Virus record (IMG/VR): IMGVR_UViG_3300042698_000010
Span: 1 to 56,698 of that record
Length of the DNA stretch: 56,698 nt
Origin: a virus
Direction: 5' to 3' (one strand)
The notes below the pieces were generated by a model. The model ran no database searches. It was not told the origin of the DNA and saw nothing but the letters and a program-made list of their open reading frames with translations. Positions 6,179-32,191 of the stretch are shown here, in pieces. The first letter of the stretch is position 1. Every line of letters starts with the position of its first letter. Position numbers and translations under genes: made by a program.

Positions 6179-6513
6179 GCGCCTTCGAACGGGTCTGGGT
6201 CGGCGCCATCGGCCGCTGCACCAACCACGGCCAGCTGGAAGAGACCGTCAACGGCGCCATCCGTGCCCGCGCCTACGGCGAGCAGGCCCGCTGGGCCTAC
6301 GTCCAGCGCCTGAACCAGTTGCACACCGAAGAGGTGATACGGCTGGACGAGCGGATCAAGGTTCTTCGCGAGGTGCGCAACGCCGTGGCGTCCGCCGAGC
6401 GCGGGTCACACGATCCGTACCTGTGGGGTTACGGGACCATGCTGGTCCGGAAGTACCTGACGTGGATGCTGGCCGAGGCGCGCCGCGCAGCCGGGCTGGA
6501 ACCGCCGCGGTAG
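6175..6513 (+). CDS. Hypothetical protein, 112 aa
   Basis: The GTG start overlaps the stop of the RecB-like nuclease. The product is highly charged and probably all-helical (QRLNQLHTEEVIRLDERIKVLREVRNAV) with a C-terminal YLTWMLAEARRAAGLEPPR. No family is recognised. Coupling to the nuclease suggests a partner or accessory factor. A long hairpin at 6522-6559 ends the unit. Confidence 0.75.
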   Translation: MSAFERVWVGAIGRCTNHGQLEETVNGAIRARAYGEQARWAYVQRLNQLHTEEVIRLDERIKVLREVRNAVASAERGSHDPYLWGYGTMLVRKYLTWMLAEARRAAGLEPPR

Positions 6514-6521
6514 CCTGCTGG

Positions 6522-6559
6522 GGCCCGGTTGATACGTGAGTTCACGTTGACACCGGGCC
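6522..6559 (+). terminator. Compound hairpin with operator-like core
   Basis: An outer 8-bp stem (GGCCCGGT with ACCGGGCC) encloses an inner palindrome ACGTGA-GT-TCACGT (6534-6547). It probably terminates the nuclease unit. The inner palindrome could also be a protein-binding site because it abuts a TTGACA -35 element. Confidence 0.5.
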
Positions 6560-6576
6560 TCAGTTACTGGCAGAAT
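6547..6576 (+). promoter_or_regulatory. Candidate promoter, TTGACA type
   Basis: TTGACA, 18 bases, CAGAAT upstream of the gene at 6712. The -35 overlaps the 3' arm of the palindrome ACGTGAGTTCACGT by one base, so a bound repressor could block it. Confidence 0.4.
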
Positions 6577-6711
6577 AGAGGCAACGCACAGGGTTCGGAA
6601 GCACCCCGTGCAAGGGTCCGGCGGCCCGGCAGTTCCAAGGTTCCCCCAGGGCTTAGGACAGCAGCGGCCGCCGGACCGGCCACAACGACAGCAGCAGAAA
6701 GAGGTAGCAGC

Positions 6712-7167
6712 ATGAGCCGTGACGAGTTCGACAGCGCGAGCGCGTACGTCGCGATCAAGGACCTGATGGGTGAGCTGGTGCTCTTCACCCCGTCCGAGCA
6801 CGTCGAAGAGGTCCAGACCGACTTCGGTCAGAAGGACGCGGTCCTCACCGACATCGTGGTCCTGTCGCAGGACGGCGCCCCCGAGTTCAACGACGTGATG
6901 ATCTTCCAGGGGTCGCTGATCGGCCAGCTGAAGCGGCGCGTCCCGCAGCGCAACCAGGCCACCGGCCAGGTCATCCGCGAGGGCCGCAAGCTGCTCGGCC
7001 GCATCGGCAAGGGTGAGGCGAAGAAGGGCCAGAACGCCCCCTACATCCTGGTCGACCCGAGCGACGAGGACAAGCAGGCGGCCCGCGACTACCTGGCGGG
7101 ACGCATCGTCGCCGCTGCCGCCCCGGCGTCCACCCCCGCGGCCGAAGACCCCTTCGCGGTCAAGTAG
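6712..7167 (+). CDS. Conserved replication-region protein, possible ssDNA-binding protein
   Basis: The 151-residue product starts MSRDEFDSASAYVAIKDLMG, echoing the N-terminus of the upstream nuclease (SPDEFDSATAVVEQMVGNL). It is followed by a beta-rich segment (GELVLFTP, AVLTDIVVL, NDVMIFQGSLIGQLKRR) and ends in an alanine-rich linker with an acidic tail EDPFAVK. That architecture resembles a single-stranded DNA-binding protein with an acidic tip, and the position fits. The fold cannot be shown from sequence alone, so the function is an inference. ATG 6712 has AAAGAGG upstream. Confidence 0.7.
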   Translation: MSRDEFDSASAYVAIKDLMGELVLFTPSEHVEEVQTDFGQKDAVLTDIVVLSQDGAPEFNDVMIFQGSLIGQLKRRVPQRNQATGQVIREGRKLLGRIGKGEAKKGQNAPYILVDPSDEDKQAARDYLAGRIVAAAAPASTPAAEDPFAVK

Positions 7168-7228
7168 GCCAGCCCCGGCCCGGTGATCCTGTCGACCCCC
7201 ACTCGGCGGATCACCGGGCCGATGTTCC

Positions 7229-7303
7229 GCCCCCGTAGCTCAGTCTGGCCAGAGCAACCGCGTCGTAAGCGGTCAGCCGCAGGTTCGAATCCTGCCGGGG
7301 GCT
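7229..7303 (+). tRNA. tRNA-Thr (anticodon CGT)
   Basis: A complete cloverleaf: acceptor GCCCCCG/CGGGGGC, D-stem GCTC/GAGC, anticodon stem ACCGC/GCGGT with loop GTCGTAA, and T-arm GCAGG-TTCGAAT-CCTGC. Anticodon CGT reads ACG (Thr). CCA is not encoded. Antisense reading gives the GRIRTCG peptide typical of tRNA-antisense ORFs. Confidence 0.93.
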
Positions 7304-7305
7304 CT

Positions 7306-7386
7306 GGAAGTCCTGTGTACGCCAAGAGGTAGAGCGGCCCGGTCACGCGGGTGGATGCGGGTGTCCGGACCCGCCACAGGACTTCC
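7306..7386 (+). ncRNA. 81-nt stem-loop RNA 1 (tRNA-like)
   Basis: A perfect 12-bp inverted repeat (GGAAGTCCTGTG, 7306-7317, with CACAGGACTTCC, 7375-7386) closes a 57-nt interior. Inside are a CCCG/CGGG hairpin with loop GTCACG and a GCGGG/CCCGC hairpin in T-arm position, so a cloverleaf-like shape is possible. A T33 and a TTCRA T-loop are missing, so this is not a standard tRNA. It begins 2 nt after the tRNA-Thr. A second element of exactly the same length follows the next tRNA-like gene. Confidence 0.55.
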
Positions 7387-7388
7387 GC

Positions 7389-7454
7389 GGGACCGCAGCT
7401 TAACGGCCGAGCGGTGTGACGACACAGGTGCGGGTTCGAATCCCGCCGGTCCCA
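7389..7454 (+). tRNA. Short tRNA-like gene, anticodon arm reduced
   Basis: Acceptor GGGACCG/CGGTCCC with discriminator A, D-stem GCTT/GAGC and a canonical T-arm GCGGG-TTCGAAT-CCCGC are all present. Total length is only 66 nt, because the anticodon arm is reduced to TGTG-ACGA-CACA, a 4-bp stem with a 4-base loop. No amino acid can be assigned with confidence. It may be a decaying tRNA or a tRNA mimic. Confidence 0.55.
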
Positions 7455-7456
7455 CT

Positions 7457-7537
7457 GGAAGACCGAGACCGTCAACGTAGCGGCCAGAGTATCGGCGAAC
7501 GGGGAACAGTCGCGGCCCCGGTCGGTCTCGGTCTTCC
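7457..7537 (+). ncRNA. 81-nt stem-loop RNA 2
   Basis: A perfect 15-bp inverted repeat (GGAAGACCGAGACCG, 7457-7471, with CGGTCTCGGTCTTCC, 7523-7537) closes a 51-nt interior holding a CGGGG/CCCCG hairpin near the 3' side. Like element 1 it is 81 nt long, begins GGAAG, ends CTTCC and follows a tRNA-type gene after the bases CT. Beyond the GGAAG/CTTCC ends the stems differ in sequence yet stay paired, which points to a conserved RNA structure. Confidence 0.55.
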
Positions 7538-7569
7538 GTCCTAGCAGCAGCAGTAGCAGAGAGGTTCCC

Positions 7570-7764
7570 ATGGCCATTACCGAAGGGCGTCGCCTTGACG
7601 TCCGCGCCATCGCGCCGCACCGCGGCGTGTCCGAGCGCCGTAAGCAGTTCGACAAGCACATCGACGACTGCACCGACTGCCAGCCCGTCCTGTGTTCGAC
7701 CGCTCAGGCCATGTGGCGCGGCCTCTGCCTGGCGGCCCTGCGGGCCACCCCCGGCGGTGCGTGA
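7570..7764 (+). CDS. Hypothetical cysteine-containing protein, 64 aa
   Basis: ATG 7570 has AGAGAGG upstream, behind the RNA cluster. The product contains HIDDCTDCQPVLCSTAQAMW and a later Cys, a spacing that could form a small zinc site. The stop codon overlaps the ATG of the next gene by one base (TGATG), so the two are coupled. No family is recognised. Confidence 0.65.
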   Translation: MAITEGRRLDVRAIAPHRGVSERRKQFDKHIDDCTDCQPVLCSTAQAMWRGLCLAALRATPGGA

Positions 7765-8708
7765 TGGCGCGGCGTATCGACACGGGCTGGCGTGACACGC
7801 TGCTCGGCACGCGGCACGCGAAGTGGGGCTTCCACGCACCGGCCGCCGGGATGAAGATGCCGATGATCGAGTACGACCGCGGCCGCGCCGTCGGCATCGT
7901 CTCGTACCTGCCGCTCGGGCTCGACCTTCCCAGCGGCCCGGACGTGAACTCGGCGTACAGCGCCTTCGGCGCGCTGCGGGACGCCAGCGGCATGGACCAG
8001 CTGCCGTTCCTCACGGCCCGCTACGACGTGCGGGACTGGTCGATGGAAGTCTTCCCCCACAACGACGCGGCGCAGCGCCTGATGAGCCTTGCAGGGTCCG
8101 CATGGGTGAAGATGGCAGAGGCCGACTTCGCCGCGCTGCTCTACCGCATGCGCGGGCGTGAGCTGCCGGACCTGTCGCCGTACTGCGTGACATGGAACAC
8201 GGAATGGCTGCGGATCTACGGCGGGGACCTTCCGCTGGCCGACGGCTTCGAGCGCTGGCCCGGTGAGCCCATGAGCGTGCGGCGGCGGAACTACGAGCCG
8301 AAGGTGTCCATCCCGTTCGGCCAGCGGGTGCCGTGCCTGGACATCGACTTCGCCGTGATTGACCGCGAGAGCCGCGTGGCTGCCCTGGTCGACTACAAGG
8401 CGGCCGGTGGGCGGCTGCCGGTGAACCTGGTCCACCCGAACCTGAAGGCGCTGGCCAGCCTCACGAGCGGTGGCCTGAGCAGCGGCACCAACGTGGCTGC
8501 CTTCGTCGCCGAGTACACGCCGGTGCGGCACAGCTGGGAACTGAGGGTTCACCCGATCAACAAGTCGGCCCGGCTGCTGCTTGCCTACGCGCTCGGCGCC
8601 GTCAACGCCAACGTCTCGGCCCTGGCTTCCACCGTCGCCGGTGGCGAGTGGATCGCACTGACCGAGGACGAGTGGACCGACGTGCTTCGCTGCGCACGCG
8701 ACACCTAG
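7764..8708 (+). CDS. Probable PD-(D/E)XK-type nuclease
   Basis: The 314-residue product contains CLDIDFAVIDRESRVAALVDYKAA at about residues 190-213. An Asp followed about 15 residues later by Asp-x-Lys (VDYK) is the arrangement of restriction-enzyme-like PD-(D/E)XK nucleases, which often cleave or trim phage DNA. The region before it is not recognised. It is coupled to the small Cys gene upstream and is followed by a terminator fused to the next promoter. The motif is short, so the assignment is moderate. Confidence 0.6.
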   Translation: MARRIDTGWRDTLLGTRHAKWGFHAPAAGMKMPMIEYDRGRAVGIVSYLPLGLDLPSGPDVNSAYSAFGALRDASGMDQLPFLTARYDVRDWSMEVFPHNDAAQRLMSLAGSAWVKMAEADFAALLYRMRGRELPDLSPYCVTWNTEWLRIYGGDLPLADGFERWPGEPMSVRRRNYEPKVSIPFGQRVPCLDIDFAVIDRESRVAALVDYKAAGGRLPVNLVHPNLKALASLTSGGLSSGTNVAAFVAEYTPVRHSWELRVHPINKSARLLLAYALGAVNANVSALASTVAGGEWIALTEDEWTDVLRCARDT

Positions 8709-8721
8709 CCCGACCTGCGGT

Positions 8722-8756
8722 AACAGCCCCGCTGGATTCCTTCCGGCGGGGCTGTT
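8722..8756 (+). terminator. Terminator fused to next promoter
   Basis: AACAGCCCCGC pairs with GCGGGGCTGTT across a 13-base loop after the stop at 8708. Its last two bases start the TTGCAT -35 element of the next unit. The motif GACCTGCGG (8712-8720) stands directly before the stem. Confidence 0.75.
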
Positions 8757-8783
8757 GCATTCCCTGGCGACTAGATGTAGTGT
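8755..8783 (+). promoter_or_regulatory. Promoter, TTGCAT-N17-TAGTGT
   Basis: A clear member of the recurrent promoter type, upstream of the basic protein gene at 8828 and abutting the terminator at 8722-8756. Confidence 0.7.
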
Positions 8784-8827
8784 TGTTCCTGTCAGCAGGA
8801 CGCAGCAGCAGCAGAGAAGAGGACCCC

Positions 8828-9166
8828 ATGAACGCCAGCGCACGCAAGGCCCGCCGCCTGATCAACGAGCGCCGTGACCTGGCGAAGGGCATCGAGCGCA
8901 AGCGCCTCATCTCGGCCCACGTGGCCCGCGCCACTGCCGACACCGCGGCACGCAAGACAGTGACCGCCGCGCTTCAGAAGGCGGCCAAGCCGCTGCGCGA
9001 GGCTGGCGACCTGGGCACCGTGAAGACCCGCGTCTGCGCTGTCGCCGACGGCGTCCGCGGGAAGACCCACCGCTACACCGCCCGCCAGGTGGCGAAGATC
9101 GCCGCCCAGTACAACCCGCGCAAGGCCGAGGGCAAGGCCGCGAAGGCCGCGCTGCTCGGCGCGTAA
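8828..9166 (+). CDS. Small basic, possibly nucleic-acid-binding protein
   Basis: The 112-residue product is rich in Lys, Arg and Ala and should be mostly helical (ARKARRLINERRDLAKGIER, YTARQVAKIAAQYN), a composition often seen in DNA-binding or nucleoid-type proteins. ATG 8828 has AGAAGAGG upstream. It is a single-gene unit with its own promoter and a strong terminator. No domain is recognised, so DNA binding is inferred from charge only. Confidence 0.7.
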   Translation: MNASARKARRLINERRDLAKGIERKRLISAHVARATADTAARKTVTAALQKAAKPLREAGDLGTVKTRVCAVADGVRGKTHRYTARQVAKIAAQYNPRKAEGKAAKAALLGA

Positions 9167-26798: not shown

Positions 26799-29700
26799 TC
26801 ACTTCCCGTCGTCGGTGGTGTCCGTGACCATGGTACGGGCTTCGGCGAGCAGCTCGGCCAGCTCAGCTGCCTCGGCAGCCTTGCGGTCCTCGGCCCGCGA
26901 CATGGCCGCCACCAGGCTGTCGGCCAGCTTGTCGTAGTCGATGACGGGCTCGACCGCGATGCGGGCCTCTTCCTGCTGCCGGGCCTCTTCGGCCTTGACG
27001 GCCGCGCTGGTCTCGACCATGAGAGCGGCCGCCGTCAGCGCCAGCTGGCTGCGCTCGACCACGGCCGAGGCGAGCAGCGGGGACGAGTGACCGGGCACCG
27101 GCACAGACAGCACCGCGCGAAGTTCCCACCGGCCGCTCTGGCCCTGCTTCAGGTGGTAGCTCGGCTGGCACGTGGCGAACACGTTGCGGTCCCACTCGCT
27201 CATCCACGGGGCGGCCGCACCGCTGAACCACATGCCGCGCTCGGACATGCCCACGGTGATGATGCCCGCCACGGTCCGGGTGTCGTCGAACTGGCACGCC
27301 GCGGTTTCGCACTCGGCGCCGTCGCGGTGGTGGCCCGCGTTCATGGTGAAGGCACCGGCCTTGACCACCGAGCCGTCGTCCAGCGCGAACCGCTGGCGCA
27401 GGAAGTGGGTCGTGTCGATCTTGCCCAGCTCGTTGATCACGATCCGCTTCGCGTACCCGGCGTGAGGCTGGTTGGCCTGCGCCACCCAGCCGAAGATCCG
27501 GCCGTTGGCGTAGTTGACGCCGGGGCCACCGGGCGGCAGCTCTTCGGCGGTGGGCTCACGGAACCACGCCGCGGGCATAGGCGGAAGGTCGGCCATCGCC
27601 GCCCACGCGCTCGACTGCATCTCGTCCATGTTCTCGCTTCCGGTGACTTCGTCCACGTGCGCCCGCACGGCGGCCAGCCGGTCCTTGACGGCAGCAATCT
27701 CGTCCTGGGGGATGTCCGGCGTCTGGCCGTGGCTGCCGTTCAGCGCGCCCTCGGCCGCGAACACCCCGCGGGGGATGATCGTCAGCGTGCCGTCCACCAC
27801 GTCCGCGTAGCCCAGCTTGTAGGCAGCCTTCGTCGCCGGGTCCGCGCTGTCGTCCCGGTAGGCGTAGGCCCGGCCGATCTTCTCGGTGTCGCCGTCGGCC
27901 CACTCGAAGACGCGGGCGGTGGCCGCGTCCCCGTCCCACTGGACCTCGCGGCCCGCCACGGGAAGGTCCACGGCGCCGGTGACGGACGCCACCAATTCGC
28001 CGCTCGCGGCCAGCCGGTCGTCGTCCATCACGTGGTCCGCCTTCGCGGACGTGGTCGCGTCGGTGTACAGCCCGCGCGTCAGCTTCACAACCTCACCCCT
28101 CGAAGCGGCCAGCGCGAGCAGGCGCTGTGCCGCACTGATCGGAATCTTCAGGTACTGAGCCACGCGGCCAGGGCCCACCGGCGACTTCGAGCGGCGCACG
28201 TGGCGCAGCACCCGCGCGTAGTCGGTGTCGCTCTGGACGCCGGTGCTCTTGCGCTCGGCCCACGTGGCGGCGGTGCGCTCGGCCGATCCGGGCTGCGCGG
28301 CTTCCAGCGTGATCGACGCGCTCAGCTCGGCCAGCTCGGGCTCGGCAGCGGCGTAGAGAGCCGGGTCGTCCAGGGTGATGCGGGCACCGGCGAAGGCGGG
28401 GATGTTGACCAGCGTGGCGCCCCGGATGCGGCCGCGGGTGATCCGCATGAGGTAGTCACCGCACTTCTGTCCGTCGACCACCACGCCGTCCGTTGCGTCC
28501 GGGTCACCCGCGGCCGCCTCAATCTCGAAGGCCTCGCGCGGTACGGTCCCGTCCGGGCCGACGGTGAACAGCACGCGGGCCGACTCGGTCACGGTCGCGG
28601 TTCCGGACGCCTTCATGGTCGGCGCCAGCTCACCCCGCAGGAAGTACCCGCCGTCCGGGGTGGGCAGCATGGACGCGCGCAGCAGACGGGCACGGTAGAC
28701 GGCCTCGCCACCGGCGGTGGCGTCGACCATCTCAACATCCACGTCGTCCAGGTCGACGCTGACGCCGAGCGGCGCGCCCTGCGAGAGCAGCATGGCGGCG
28801 TCAAAGCCCTCTTCGCGCGACAGGTACAGGCAGCCGTCGGCGGCGATCCGGTCGCCGTCGCGGGCCAGGTTCATGATCGCACCGGCCAGCGCTGCATCGT
28901 CGTGGCTGTCGAAGTTGTCGTTCGCCATAAGCGGCCACGGGCCGGGGCCATCCCAGTAGAGAGCGCCGGGGGTGAACACCCGCCCGTCGCCCGTCTGCTG
29001 GTTCTCGTAGGCCAGCGCGTCGGTGCCCGGCGTCGACCACATGGCGAGCGCGGGCCCTTCCGGCGCGACGTAGTCGGCAGCTTCTTCGATGTCCATGGGT
29101 TCCACCTCAGGGTTGACGGTCAGCGGGAAGTCCGTGTACTGCCCGCCGAAGCCGACGCGAAGGCGGTCGAAGACGACCGGGCCGCAGGCCGACGCGAAGT
29201 CGCCCACATCGCCCACGTCGCCGTACCCGATCGCCATGTGCGGCGCCCACGGGGTGTGCTGGTCGGGCATCTGCGGCATGTCCGGTGACTCGCCACCGCG
29301 GTCTTCCAGCGAATACTGGACTTCCAGGTGGACGTCCCGCAGCCGCTGGCCGGTGTCGGCGATGTGGTCCACGTCGTCCCCGATGTTCCACACCCAGCAC
29401 GGGTTATCGCTGTCCGGGTTCCACAGCGCGACGCCGAAGGCCTTCGCGTTGACCGGCTGAAGCCACTCGGCCGCCGTACCCATGGCGCGGATCACCTCGG
29501 CCCGCGCGGCTTCGTCCCACTCGGCCGCCTCGCCCAGGTAGAACAGCGTCACGTGCAGCTGGTCCTCGGCTTCGCTGGCGTAGGCCGCGAGACGCGCAGC
29601 GTCCTCGGCACTCGGCATGAGCGCGACCATGGCGCCGGTGTGCTCGGCCGAAGCGGCCATGCTGGCGGTCCTTCCGTCGGGGCGCGGCGGCGCGGTTGCC

Positions 29701-30428
29701 ACCATCACGCACCGGCAGTTTACCGTCAGATCCGCGGGGGCCGTCGGGTCGCCGGGGTACTGCATCTCGAAGCCACCAACGTCGAACGGGTCGGCGAGAA
29801 GACGGATCTGTCCGTTCACCTCGCGGTGCGCCTCGCGGACCTTCGCGTCGTTGCGCGTCAGCCACTGCTTGACCAGCGGCCGGTCCGGCCCCTGGATCAC
29901 CTCGGCCGAGGCGAGCGCCCCGGCGTTGAAGGCGCGGACGGCTTCCGTCTGCGCAATGCGATCCGCACGGACCGGGCCGAGCTGGCTGCTGGTGTCGCTG
30001 AACGCAGCCAGCAGACGGGCCTTCAGCTGGTCCAGCGACTCACCCGCGTTGACGCCGTCGGCCAGCGTCTGCTGGGCTGCCTGCGCCAGGTTGTCGCCGA
30101 CCGTGCGCAGCAGCGGGCTGACGGCGTCGCCGTAGGCTGCCAGAGCGTCGGCCAGCTCGGCCGAGGACGGCTCGGGCGCCTGGACGTCCTCGGCCGTCAG
30201 CCGCGCGCTGCGCCGGAAGATGCTGCGCAGCGACGTCATGATCCGCGGGATCCGGCGGTTCCACAGCTCACGGATGTCGGACACGCTGTAGACGGCTGCG
30301 ACCAGCTCGGTGGCCGAGTCCACGTTGTCGGCGAACTCGGCCGACACCTGGTCAAGCTGGTCCTGGACGATCGGGACAAGCTCTGCCTCGAAGCCTTCGA
30401 GCAGCGCGTCCAGCTCGGCTTCGGTCAT
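26799..30428 (-). CDS. MuF-like head protein / 2H phosphoesterase / maturation protease fusion
   Basis: The 1209-residue product is a head polyprotein. Residues 1-240 are MuF-like and end in the GQIRLLADPFDVGG and NCRC pattern. About 265-415 is a 2H (LigT-like) phosphoesterase domain with both histidine motifs, HVTLFYLG (His292) and HMAIGYG (His397). About 455-700 resembles actinophage capsid maturation protease regions (ANDNFDSHDDAALAGAIM, GAPLGVSVDLDD). About 733-790 is a winged-helix-like segment (GRVAQYLKIPISAAQRLLAL). The rest is a structural region with a charged coiled-coil end. ATG 30428 overlaps the portal stop. The fused protease probably matures the capsid. Confidence 0.85.
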   Translation of the reverse strand: MTEAELDALLEGFEAELVPIVQDQLDQVSAEFADNVDSATELVAAVYSVSDIRELWNRRIPRIMTSLRSIFRRSARLTAEDVQAPEPSSAELADALAAYGDAVSPLLRTVGDNLAQAAQQTLADGVNAGESLDQLKARLLAAFSDTSSQLGPVRADRIAQTEAVRAFNAGALASAEVIQGPDRPLVKQWLTRNDAKVREAHREVNGQIRLLADPFDVGGFEMQYPGDPTAPADLTVNCRCVMVATAPPRPDGRTASMAASAEHTGAMVALMPSAEDAARLAAYASEAEDQLHVTLFYLGEAAEWDEAARAEVIRAMGTAAEWLQPVNAKAFGVALWNPDSDNPCWVWNIGDDVDHIADTGQRLRDVHLEVQYSLEDRGGESPDMPQMPDQHTPWAPHMAIGYGDVGDVGDFASACGPVVFDRLRVGFGGQYTDFPLTVNPEVEPMDIEEAADYVAPEGPALAMWSTPGTDALAYENQQTGDGRVFTPGALYWDGPGPWPLMANDNFDSHDDAALAGAIMNLARDGDRIAADGCLYLSREEGFDAAMLLSQGAPLGVSVDLDDVDVEMVDATAGGEAVYRARLLRASMLPTPDGGYFLRGELAPTMKASGTATVTESARVLFTVGPDGTVPREAFEIEAAAGDPDATDGVVVDGQKCGDYLMRITRGRIRGATLVNIPAFAGARITLDDPALYAAAEPELAELSASITLEAAQPGSAERTAATWAERKSTGVQSDTDYARVLRHVRRSKSPVGPGRVAQYLKIPISAAQRLLALAASRGEVVKLTRGLYTDATTSAKADHVMDDDRLAASGELVASVTGAVDLPVAGREVQWDGDAATARVFEWADGDTEKIGRAYAYRDDSADPATKAAYKLGYADVVDGTLTIIPRGVFAAEGALNGSHGQTPDIPQDEIAAVKDRLAAVRAHVDEVTGSENMDEMQSSAWAAMADLPPMPAAWFREPTAEELPPGGPGVNYANGRIFGWVAQANQPHAGYAKRIVINELGKIDTTHFLRQRFALDDGSVVKAGAFTMNAGHHRDGAECETAACQFDDTRTVAGIITVGMSERGMWFSGAAAPWMSEWDRNVFATCQPSYHLKQGQSGRWELRAVLSVPVPGHSSPLLASAVVERSQLALTAAALMVETSAAVKAEEARQQEEARIAVEPVIDYDKLADSLVAAMSRAEDRKAAEAAELAELLAEARTMVTDTTDDGK

Positions 30429-32191
30429 GCCGCCACCGCCTTGACGCGCAGCTGCGCGAGCAGCCGGGGGACGTTGTCGAACTCGTGCGGCTGGCCGGTC
30501 ACCAGCAGCGCGGTGACGTAGTCGTGCAGTGCCGAGGTCAGCTCGATCGAGTCGACGCCGTAGCGAGCTGCGATGACGGGCACGCGCACCCACGCGTCGT
30601 TCAGCAGGCCGAAGGCGTTCACGTCGTCCTCGCTGCGCAGCGGGTGGGACGTGTGAAGGCTGCCGCGGGCGGCCAGCTCACGGGCCGTACCGCGGTTCGG
30701 CCGGGGGACGACCGGGGTGAGCGTCAGCTTGCGGCCAGCGACCACCAGCGCGGACCACACCAGGCCGTCGACCGCTTCGGCGAGCGCTGCATCGGTGCCC
30801 GCGGTGAAGCTGTCGAGAACGGCCTCAGAGGCGGCCAGGGCGGTCTCGTTGGGCGTCCCGGTGTTCGGGGCTGACTGAGTGCTGTCCACGGGCAGGGTGC
30901 CCCCTTCGGGCTGGGTGGTGGCGGTTTGCTGCTCGTCCGGGGTGCTGCCGACGGCGCCCGGTGCGTCCGCCTCGGTGAAGCCGAGCTCACGCCGCGCGGC
31001 CTGGTCGCTGATCAGGCCCAGCTTGAATGCTTCCAGCGCGCTGGCCCCCTTGTTGCTGCTGGCCCGCAGCCCGGACGTGTCGTACCAGACCAGGAACTCG
31101 GCGGCGTTCGCCTCGCCCTCGGACGCCAGGATCGGCTGAAGCCACTGCGTGGTGAGCGACTGGCAGATGAGCGCGAGGCGGGGCTCTGCACCCAGCCGCA
31201 GCGCCTCGGCCGTGATGGCCCACGCGCCCCAGTGGTTCGCGTCGCCCATGCCCAGCAGGATTTCGGCCGGGATGTCGGCGCCAGCGGCGAAGCGGCGCAC
31301 GGCCTCATCGCGCAGCTGAAGGGCCATGGCGTCGAATTCGCTGGTGAACTGAAGCCACTTCACGCCGCTGATCAGGTCGCCGGGAACTTCCAGCACGATC
31401 GGCACGGTGGCGGCAGCGCTGTCCGGCTCACGGATGGCGGTGGACGCCACTTCGATGAACGTGTCCAGCAGCGAGTCTTCCGCACCGTCCTGGCCCGGCT
31501 GTGTCGGGAACCGGGTACCGGCGGGGATCAGCAGGATGCCCCGGCCGGTGATCCGGCTCTTGGCGATGGCGGCCACCGCGGCATTGAGCAGGCGCAGCTC
31601 TTCCAGCACCACCAGAGACCGGATGACGGGGCTGGTGGCCTGGCTGTGGCGGCGCGGGGACGGCTTCCAGATCCGCATGTAAACCGGGGCCGTGGGGTCC
31701 TGCTCGGCCTTCGGGTCGTACTCGGGGATCTCGATCTCTTCCCCGTCGATCACGGCCTTCAGCTTCCCGCGCTGAACGGTGACTTCCTCGGTGGACAGGA
31801 CCACCCAGCGGTCGTCCGCCATGTTGTCCGACTCGGGGGCGGGGATGACGATCAGCCACAGGTCGCCGGTGACGCACAGCTGCGTGCCCGCGTCGCCGAG
31901 CATGACGCCCTGGCCCTCGGGGCCGCCCGCGATGGACGCGACCAGCTCGGCGGCGCGGCTGCCCTCGGCAGCGGGCAGGATCTCACCGTCCGGCCCGCGG
32001 TACCCGGCGAACAGCGTCGCACCGGACATGGCGTTGGACACCCAGTCGCTGAAGGCGCCGACCTCGGGGATCGTCTCGAAGCAATCCCATGCCAGCGTGG
32101 CGCTGCCGTTGCTGGCGCTGTTGGCCGACCCCTTGCCCTTACCGCCCAGCAGCCGCGAGGCGGCCGCGGTGATCGTTGCGATAGCGCTCAT
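30425..32191 (-). CDS. Portal protein
   Basis: The 588-residue product has portal hallmarks: an N-terminal FSDWVSNAMSGATLFAGYRG region, YMRIWKPSPRRHSQATSPV, and a clip-and-stem region with LRLLNAAVAAIAKSRITGRGIL. A membrane-distal ILLGMGDANHWGAWAITAEA stretch follows. It precedes the MuF fusion by 4-base overlap. Portals form the dodecameric DNA gate of the head. ATG 32191 is clear. Confidence 0.9.
   Translation of the reverse strand: MSAIATITAAASRLLGGKGKGSANSASNGSATLAWDCFETIPEVGAFSDWVSNAMSGATLFAGYRGPDGEILPAAEGSRAAELVASIAGGPEGQGVMLGDAGTQLCVTGDLWLIVIPAPESDNMADDRWVVLSTEEVTVQRGKLKAVIDGEEIEIPEYDPKAEQDPTAPVYMRIWKPSPRRHSQATSPVIRSLVVLEELRLLNAAVAAIAKSRITGRGILLIPAGTRFPTQPGQDGAEDSLLDTFIEVASTAIREPDSAAATVPIVLEVPGDLISGVKWLQFTSEFDAMALQLRDEAVRRFAAGADIPAEILLGMGDANHWGAWAITAEALRLGAEPRLALICQSLTTQWLQPILASEGEANAAEFLVWYDTSGLRASSNKGASALEAFKLGLISDQAARRELGFTEADAPGAVGSTPDEQQTATTQPEGGTLPVDSTQSAPNTGTPNETALAASEAVLDSFTAGTDAALAEAVDGLVWSALVVAGRKLTLTPVVPRPNRGTARELAARGSLHTSHPLRSEDDVNAFGLLNDAWVRVPVIAARYGVDSIELTSALHDYVTALLVTGQPHEFDNVPRLLAQLRVKAVAA

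What the first reader, a model, noticed from the sequence alone, without database searches (positions are those of the whole stretch)
7306..7537. Two 81-nt stem-loop RNAs, each placed right behind a tRNA-type gene, with compensating stems
The order is tRNA-Thr, CT, GGAAG-stem RNA 1, tRNA-like gene, CT, GGAAG-stem RNA 2. Both stem-loops are exactly 81 nt, begin GGAAG and end CTTCC. Their long stems (12 and 15 bp) otherwise differ completely but stay perfectly paired, a hallmark of selected RNA structure. Interiors hold T-arm-like hairpins near the 3' side. They may be tRNA mimics, decoys for tRNA-targeting host defences, or processing modules.
Basis: seen in the sequence. Interest (0 to 1): 0.82.

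Follow-up and report, generated by a model that had tools for sequence, protein, structure and literature searches.

The report
Phage tRNA array hiding clamped RNAs
A Streptomyces-type phage carries, wedged between its tRNA genes, two unannotated small RNAs sealed by long, perfectly paired end stems; related phages keep such stems paired while changing their letters, so these are probably real small RNAs (at least one looks like a reshaped tRNA) whose job in infection is still unknown.

Summary
RNA1 (7306-7386) and RNA2 (7457-7537) are 81 nt, start GGAAG, end CTTCC, have terminal stems of 12 and 15 Watson-Crick pairs, and each starts 2 nt (CT) behind a tRNA or tRNA-like gene. Both fold about 4 sd better than shuffles. 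The strongest support is comparative. Related Woodruffvirus-type phages hold unannotated tRNA-like and long-stem RNAs at the same spot. In Geonosis and contig L015 the 84-nt interior is 75/84 identical, yet 4 of 10 aligned stem pairs changed on both sides and none broke. Contig L012 carries a homologue of RNA1 and further GGAAG..CTTCC RNAs. Long-stem RNAs also sit behind tRNAs in unrelated phages: 4 of 97 tRNAs against 1 of 768 control positions. The exact 81-nt length is not conserved. RNA1 reads as a cloverleaf with an over-long acceptor stem; RNA2 hardly resembles a tRNA. The gene between them has a tRNA body with a mini anticodon arm and cannot decode. Best model: tRNA processing releases small clamped RNAs that act as tRNA mimics. 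Structure and arrangement are shown; release and function are inferred. Nearest precedents: T4 RNAs C and D (function unknown) and bacterial YrlA, whose membership tests fail here.

The parts
6547..6576 (+). sigma-70-like promoter TTGACA-18-CAGAAT with TG, the only one found on either strand in 6450-8900; probable start of the transcript that runs into the array
   Evidence: consensus match only; 0.1 expected in shuffles
6712..7167 (+). upstream gene, phrog_870 (unknown function), the conserved left neighbour of the RNA locus in relatives
7177..7220 (+). 13-bp hairpin between the phrog_870 stop codon and tRNA-Thr (GGCCCGGTGATCC/GGATCACCGGGCC), no T tract; a hairpin stands at this place in the relatives too
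   Evidence: sequence; relatives; no terminator called
7229..7303 (+). tRNA-Thr(CGT), ordinary; followed by CT
   Evidence: conserved in L010, L011, L012
7306..7386 (+). long-stem RNA1, 81 nt: 12-bp terminal stem, D-arm-like, anticodon-arm-like and T-arm-like hairpins
   Evidence: fold; homologue L012:2907-2989
7389..7454 (+). tRNA-like gene: acceptor, D-arm and consensus T-arm, but mini anticodon arm (4 bp, GACG loop); followed by CT
   Evidence: Rfam tRNA 45.1 bits; not called by ARAGORN; fold; counterpart in L012
7457..7537 (+). long-stem RNA2, 81 nt: 15-bp terminal stem, interior only vaguely tRNA-like
   Evidence: fold; stem census
7571..7765 (+). 64-aa ORF right after the array, no family match
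7764..8708 (+). downstream gene, phrog_16357 (unknown function), the conserved right neighbour in relatives

Best explanation
RNA1 and RNA2 are small non-coding RNA genes built into a phage tRNA array. The array is read as one transcript. Enzymes that mature the tRNAs (RNase P at the 5' ends, tRNase Z or equivalent after the discriminator base, before the CU) would cut on both sides of RNA1 and on the 5' side of RNA2 and so release them. The long terminal stem closes the two ends and protects the RNA; only its pairing, not its sequence, is under selection. The cores are derived from tRNAs (clear for RNA1, weak for RNA2): D-, anticodon- and T-arm-like hairpins sit on an acceptor stem lengthened to 12-15 bp, and the tRNA-like gene between them has lost a usable anticodon loop. 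The RNAs most likely act as tRNA mimics that engage a host tRNA-binding or tRNA-cutting protein during infection. Shown: structure, compensatory change in relatives, position behind tRNAs, recurrence in other phages. Inferred: processing route, tRNA descent of RNA2, mimicry as function.
For: Perfect 12- and 15-bp end stems, z -4.0/-4.5. Among the four GGAAG RNAs of window and L012, 48 of 48 outer pairs are standard, against a mean of 35 when 3' arms are exchanged; 3-7 pairs per comparison changed on both sides, none broken. Geonosis vs L015: interior 75/84 identical, 4 of 10 aligned stem pairs changed on both sides, the other 6 unchanged. Satis vs Frankenweenie: 3 of 12 stem pairs changed on both sides, none broken. 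The same intergenic site in relatives holds tRNA-like RNAs with hypervariable anticodon arms (4 to 27 predicted pairs) or two T-arms. In known phages, 4/97 tRNAs are followed within 6 nt by a >=9-bp long-range stem vs 1/768 control positions, p = 0.0007. RNA1 and its L012 homologue share a D-arm-like segment (CGCCAAGAGGTAGAGCG / CGCCGAAAGGTCGAGCG) and cloverleaf order; L012:3065-3154 has a consensus T-arm. T4 RNAs C and D, also abutting a tRNA, are detected by Northern blot.
Against: No expression data. Rfam's tRNA model does not recognise RNA1 or RNA2 even at E<=10, so the tRNA descent of RNA1 is a structural reading and that of RNA2 is weak. A covariance model of RNA1 finds only the L012 homologue among 30 sources, 345 kb. 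L010, L011 and TP1604-like phages lack the RNAs, so they are dispensable. Nothing points to a particular protein target.
Confidence: 0.5

Rival explanations
1. Anti-defence decoys: the RNAs and the anticodon-less tRNA-like gene soak up or block host nucleases that attack tRNAs during infection.
For: Phage tRNAs counter tRNA-cutting defences (PMC11555353; PMC10264068). Tips, anticodon arms and stem letters differ from phage to phage while the framework stays, as in an arms race.
Against: Published cases work by supplying functional, insensitive tRNAs, not dead mimics. No defence gene was linked to presence or absence. Stem divergence alone can be neutral drift under pairing constraint.
Confidence: 0.25
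2. Processing or stability spacers: the stems only separate tRNAs, serve as RNase III sites or protect 3' ends of processing intermediates; the interiors do nothing.
For: Constant CT spacing behind tRNA or tRNA-like genes; long dsRNA stems; freely varying stem sequence.
Against: The Geonosis/L015 interior is far more conserved (75/84) than its stem, the reverse of what a spacer predicts; RNA1 and its L012 homologue share interior segments. The tRNA-Thr in L010 and L011 has no such RNA behind it.
Confidence: 0.2
3. Y-RNA-like tethers: end stem plus tRNA-like core, working with a Ro/Rsr-type ring protein of the host, as YrlA does.
For: YrlA has the same plan: 5'/3' stem plus tRNA-like domain (PMC8394870). 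Two other array-bearing phages with clamped RNAs, L074 and L091, encode a TROVE (Ro) protein, and L091 has a YrlA-like hit of 34.5 bits.
Against: The window region scores 13.3 bits against a gathering score of 69 and the phage has no TROVE protein. YrlA has the T-arm before the D-arm (model line), RNA1 has D before T. The stem sequences are hypervariable, unlike a sequence-specific protein site.
Confidence: 0.08
4. Decaying tRNA genes: pseudo-tRNAs left by array turnover, with stems surviving by chance.
For: Neighbours are defective tRNAs; arrays differ strongly between phages; RNA2 is only vaguely tRNA-like.
Against: Acceptor stems became longer and stay perfectly paired through two-sided changes; decay would break pairs. 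tRNA-like genes keep consensus T-arms and acceptors while only the anticodon arm varies.
Confidence: 0.05

Closest known systems
Bacteriophage T4 small stable RNAs C and D (rnaC 139 nt, rnaD 119 nt)
   Same: Two unexplained small RNAs directly abutting a tRNA in a phage tRNA array; rnaC ends in a consensus T-arm (CCGGGTTCGAATCCCGG) and has long extra hairpins. Function unknown (PMC3014915; PMC9697503).
   Different: No sequence relation; no perfect 12-15-bp terminal clamp in T4; Rfam's tRNA model does not match rnaC.
Bacterial Y RNA YrlA (RF02553) with Ro/Rsr
   Same: Terminal 5'/3' stem plus tRNA-like core in one small RNA (PMC8394870).
   Different: Different arm order, covariance model not met, no TROVE gene in the window or the Woodruffvirus-type records tested, stem sequence free to change.
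GOLLD and ROOL RNAs of phage and prophage tRNA islands
   Same: Structured non-coding RNAs of unknown function embedded near phage tRNA islands (PMC12286853).
   Different: GOLLD exceeds 800 nt in many members and both are elaborate cage-forming RNAs; no Rfam match here.
Phage tRNAs that counter tRNA-targeting defences (T5 tRNA-Tyr vs retron-Eco7, tRNA-Lys vs PrrC)
   Same: Phage-encoded tRNA-shaped RNAs placed in arrays (PMC11555353).
   Different: Those are functional tRNAs; RNA1, RNA2 and the 7389 gene cannot decode.

Membership tests
tRNA (RF00005) | covariance-model score at or above 29 bits over the full model | tested here: not met
   RNA1 and RNA2: no hit at E<=10. The gene at 7389-7454 does pass (45.1 bits).
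tRNA (RF00005) | 7-bp acceptor stem and 7-nt anticodon loop | tested here: not met
   RNA1 12-bp end stem with 6-nt loop; RNA2 15-bp; gene 7389 has a 7-bp acceptor but a 4-nt loop on a 4-bp stem.
YrlA / bacterial Y RNA (RF02553) | covariance-model score at or above 69 bits | tested here: not met
   Best in the region 13.3 bits, straddling tRNA-Thr and RNA1.
YrlA / bacterial Y RNA (RF02553) | 5'/3' terminal stem plus tRNA-like domain | tested here: inconclusive
   Terminal stem present in both; tRNA-like core plausible in RNA1 only, with different arm order.
YrlA / bacterial Y RNA (RF02553) | partner Ro/Rsr (TROVE) protein | tested here: not met
   No TROVE in the window record; a host protein was not testable.
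Phage small stable RNAs in tRNA arrays (T4 RNA C/D type) | structured non-coding RNA directly abutting tRNA genes | tested here: met
   2-nt spacing behind tRNA-Thr and the tRNA-like gene; T4 compared.
Phage small stable RNAs in tRNA arrays (T4 RNA C/D type) | detected as a stable transcript | not testable with these tools
   No RNA data for this phage.
GOLLD / ROOL | match to the Rfam model | tested here: not met
   Only tRNA matches in the window at gathering threshold.

The most novel reading that the evidence does not exclude
Phage tRNA arrays, at least in Streptomyces phages, are nurseries of a general class of 'clamped' tRNA-derived RNAs with fast-changing stems and tips, released by tRNA processing and used as decoys or inhibitors against tRNA-targeting host proteins; T4 RNAs C and D would belong to the same functional class.
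Probability: 0.2. Interest if true: 0.85.

Novelty: new variant of a known kind. Interest (0 to 1): 0.6.

Why it matters
Phage tRNA arrays are annotated as tRNAs plus empty gaps. The gaps examined here in several Streptomyces phages hold structured, unannotated RNAs, some with conserved interiors and freely changing but always paired stems. That gives a concrete, testable family next to the old question of what T4's stable RNAs C and D do, and candidate RNA-based counter-defence.

Tried and rejected
YrlA membership: not met. GOLLD/ROOL or another Rfam family: none. Rho-independent terminators: no T tracts, and the RNAs' interiors are far longer than a terminator loop. Wide homologues of RNA1 by covariance model: only L012. 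Homologues of the Geonosis/L015 RNA in viral and genome contigs by pattern: only L015. Prophage homologues of the downstream gene in bacterial genomes: none. A general pattern for tRNA-CT-GGAAG mostly returned ordinary tRNA neighbours starting GGAAG, plus L012, L074 and L091. MAFFT alignment of all four GGAAG RNAs is unreliable, so stems were compared from the ends inward. The idea that 81 nt is a fixed length was dropped.

Full report
What the window is. The record is a 56.7-kb IMG/VR virus contig. A 3.5-kb stretch around the array matches Streptomyces phages of the genus Woodruffvirus (TP1604, YDN12, Xkcd426, phiSAJS1) at about 70% DNA identity. Gene content is that of a tailed phage: primase and polymerase on the + strand, portal, capsid, tape measure and terminase on the - strand. 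The array lies between a phrog_870 gene (6712-7167) and a 64-aa ORF followed by a phrog_16357 gene (7764-8708).

Observation. The order is hairpin 7177-7220, tRNA-Thr(CGT) 7229-7303, CT, RNA1 7306-7386, GC, tRNA-like gene 7389-7454, CT, RNA2 7457-7537. Both RNAs are 81 nt and are closed by 12 and 15 uninterrupted Watson-Crick pairs. RNA1's minimum-energy fold is itself a cloverleaf: three hairpins on a long stem. Energies lie 4.0 and 4.5 sd below dinucleotide shuffles. A census of the whole window finds 7 stems of at least 11 WC pairs spanning 60-110 nt; first-order Markov resamples of the window give 0-4, nearly all 11 bp (longest 14). The finding is confirmed.

The middle gene. It scores 45.1 bits as a tRNA and has a consensus T-arm and acceptor, but its anticodon arm is GTGT-GACG-ACAC. 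It cannot read codons in the usual way, and ARAGORN does not call it.

The same site in relatives. All the relatives below have a hairpin after the phrog_870 gene. Then follow: (I) tRNA bodies whose anticodon arm is a long hairpin of very different length (Xkcd426, phiSAJS1, L016, L020, L021; 11 to 27 predicted pairs where a tRNA has 5); (II) an RNA of about 106 nt with acceptor GCGGYG../..CGCCGY and two T-arms (Abt2graduatex2, Geonosis, YDN12, L017; L018 similar but divergent); (III) long-stem RNAs (Geonosis, L015, L012). L010 and L011 have only tRNA-Thr; BayC/TP1604 have only hairpins. None of this is annotated in the public records. L012 carries a fuller version of the window array: an extended-anticodon tRNA-like, GGAAG RNA, GGGACCG tRNA-like, GGAAG RNA with a 19-bp stem (one G-T pair) and consensus T-arm, tRNA-Thr, a serine-tRNA-like gene also starting GGAAG and ending CTTCC, and another clamped RNA with a T-arm-like loop TTGGATT.

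Compensation. Geonosis and L015 share an interior identical at 75 of 84 positions. Their stems differ in 4 of the 10 aligned pairs, each on both sides, and L015 adds further outer pairs. For the four GGAAG RNAs of window and L012, all 48 of 48 outer pairs are standard; exchanging 3' arms between RNAs lowers this to 35 on average. These four are not all alignable inside, so they show paired stems across relatives and paralogues rather than a strict column-by-column test. Satis versus Frankenweenie, a different phage group, has 3 of 12 outer pairs changed on both sides and none broken.

Generality. Among 404 tRNAs in the loci then fetched, 8 had a stem of at least 11 bp starting within 8 nt behind the tRNA, against none at a +400 control; that set is partly biased by the GGAAG search. 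In a set of T4 and seven known actinophage regions not chosen for such stems, 4 of 97 tRNAs against 1 of 768 control positions had a stem of at least 9 WC pairs starting within 6 nt (Fisher p = 0.0007). JustBecause has two such RNAs, each behind a CT. L074 and L091, from another phage group, have tRNA-Leu, CT, GGAAG...CTTCC with related interiors.

How it may work. A single promoter-like site in the region lies upstream of the phrog_870 gene, and only a few bases separate the hairpin from tRNA-Thr, so co-transcription is likely (inferred). Cleavage at tRNA 5' and 3' borders would liberate RNA1 whole and free the 5' end of RNA2 (established tRNA maturation; inferred for this transcript). The blunt clamp would then guard the ends. 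The target is unknown. Mimicry of tRNA is my leading reading for RNA1, because of arm order and the D-arm-like segment kept in L012, and because every neighbour is a tRNA or a reshaped tRNA. RNA2 is weaker.

Comparison with the known. T4 RNAs C and D are the nearest in kind: they abut tRNA-Arg, rnaC ends in a consensus T-arm, they are detected as RNAs, and their function is unknown (PMC9697503; PMC3014915). YrlA shares the plan but its membership tests fail. GOLLD and ROOL are far larger (PMC12286853). In the open-access papers searched I found no description of clamped RNAs of this sort; most subscription journals are not covered.

Limits. There is no expression evidence. RNA1's only model-detectable relative is in L012. 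The tRNA model does not see RNA1 or RNA2. Function is inference.

Noticed in passing
window 26802-30593 (-): The 1264-aa portal protein has residues about 312-509 matching a stretch shared with unrelated phage proteins (an RNA ligase family and a head maturation protease family), which looks like an inserted mobile domain such as an intein.
   Followed up: no
window 6615-6677 (+): A 63-nt element closed by 12 WC pairs (GGTCCGGCGGCC/GGCCGCCGGACC) between the promoter-like site at 6547 and the phrog_870 start codon; possibly a leader RNA.
   Followed up: no
L074 and L091: Two non-Streptomyces-like phages with tRNA arrays encode a TROVE (Ro60) protein; L091 also has a YrlA-like RNA hit (34.5 bits, E 1.8e-7 in that record), and both have a clamped RNA behind tRNA-Leu.
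   Followed up: partly
L131 (JustBecause), L139 (Frankenweenie), L140 (Satis): Gaps between annotated tRNAs hold clamped RNAs and very large tRNA-like RNAs, e.g. behind tRNA-Arg and tRNA-Asn, ending in a T-arm and acceptor followed by ACT in most copies.
   Followed up: partly
L130:1109-1247 (-), T4 rnaC: T4 RNA C ends in a textbook T-arm, CCGGGTTCGAATCCCGG, and can form a 7-position acceptor-like end with two U-U mismatches (own reading).
   Followed up: partly
L136 (Gordonia phage Smoothie) 2869-3939: Several features annotated 'tRNA undetermined' or tRNA-Ser with very low scores sit in the tRNA array; probably more tRNA-like RNAs.
   Followed up: no
L003, L006, L007, L017, L018: An RNA of about 106 nt with acceptor GCGGYG../..CGCCGY, a T-arm, a closed GC hairpin and a second T-arm; cmscan links it only weakly to tRNA-Sec.
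   Followed up: partly
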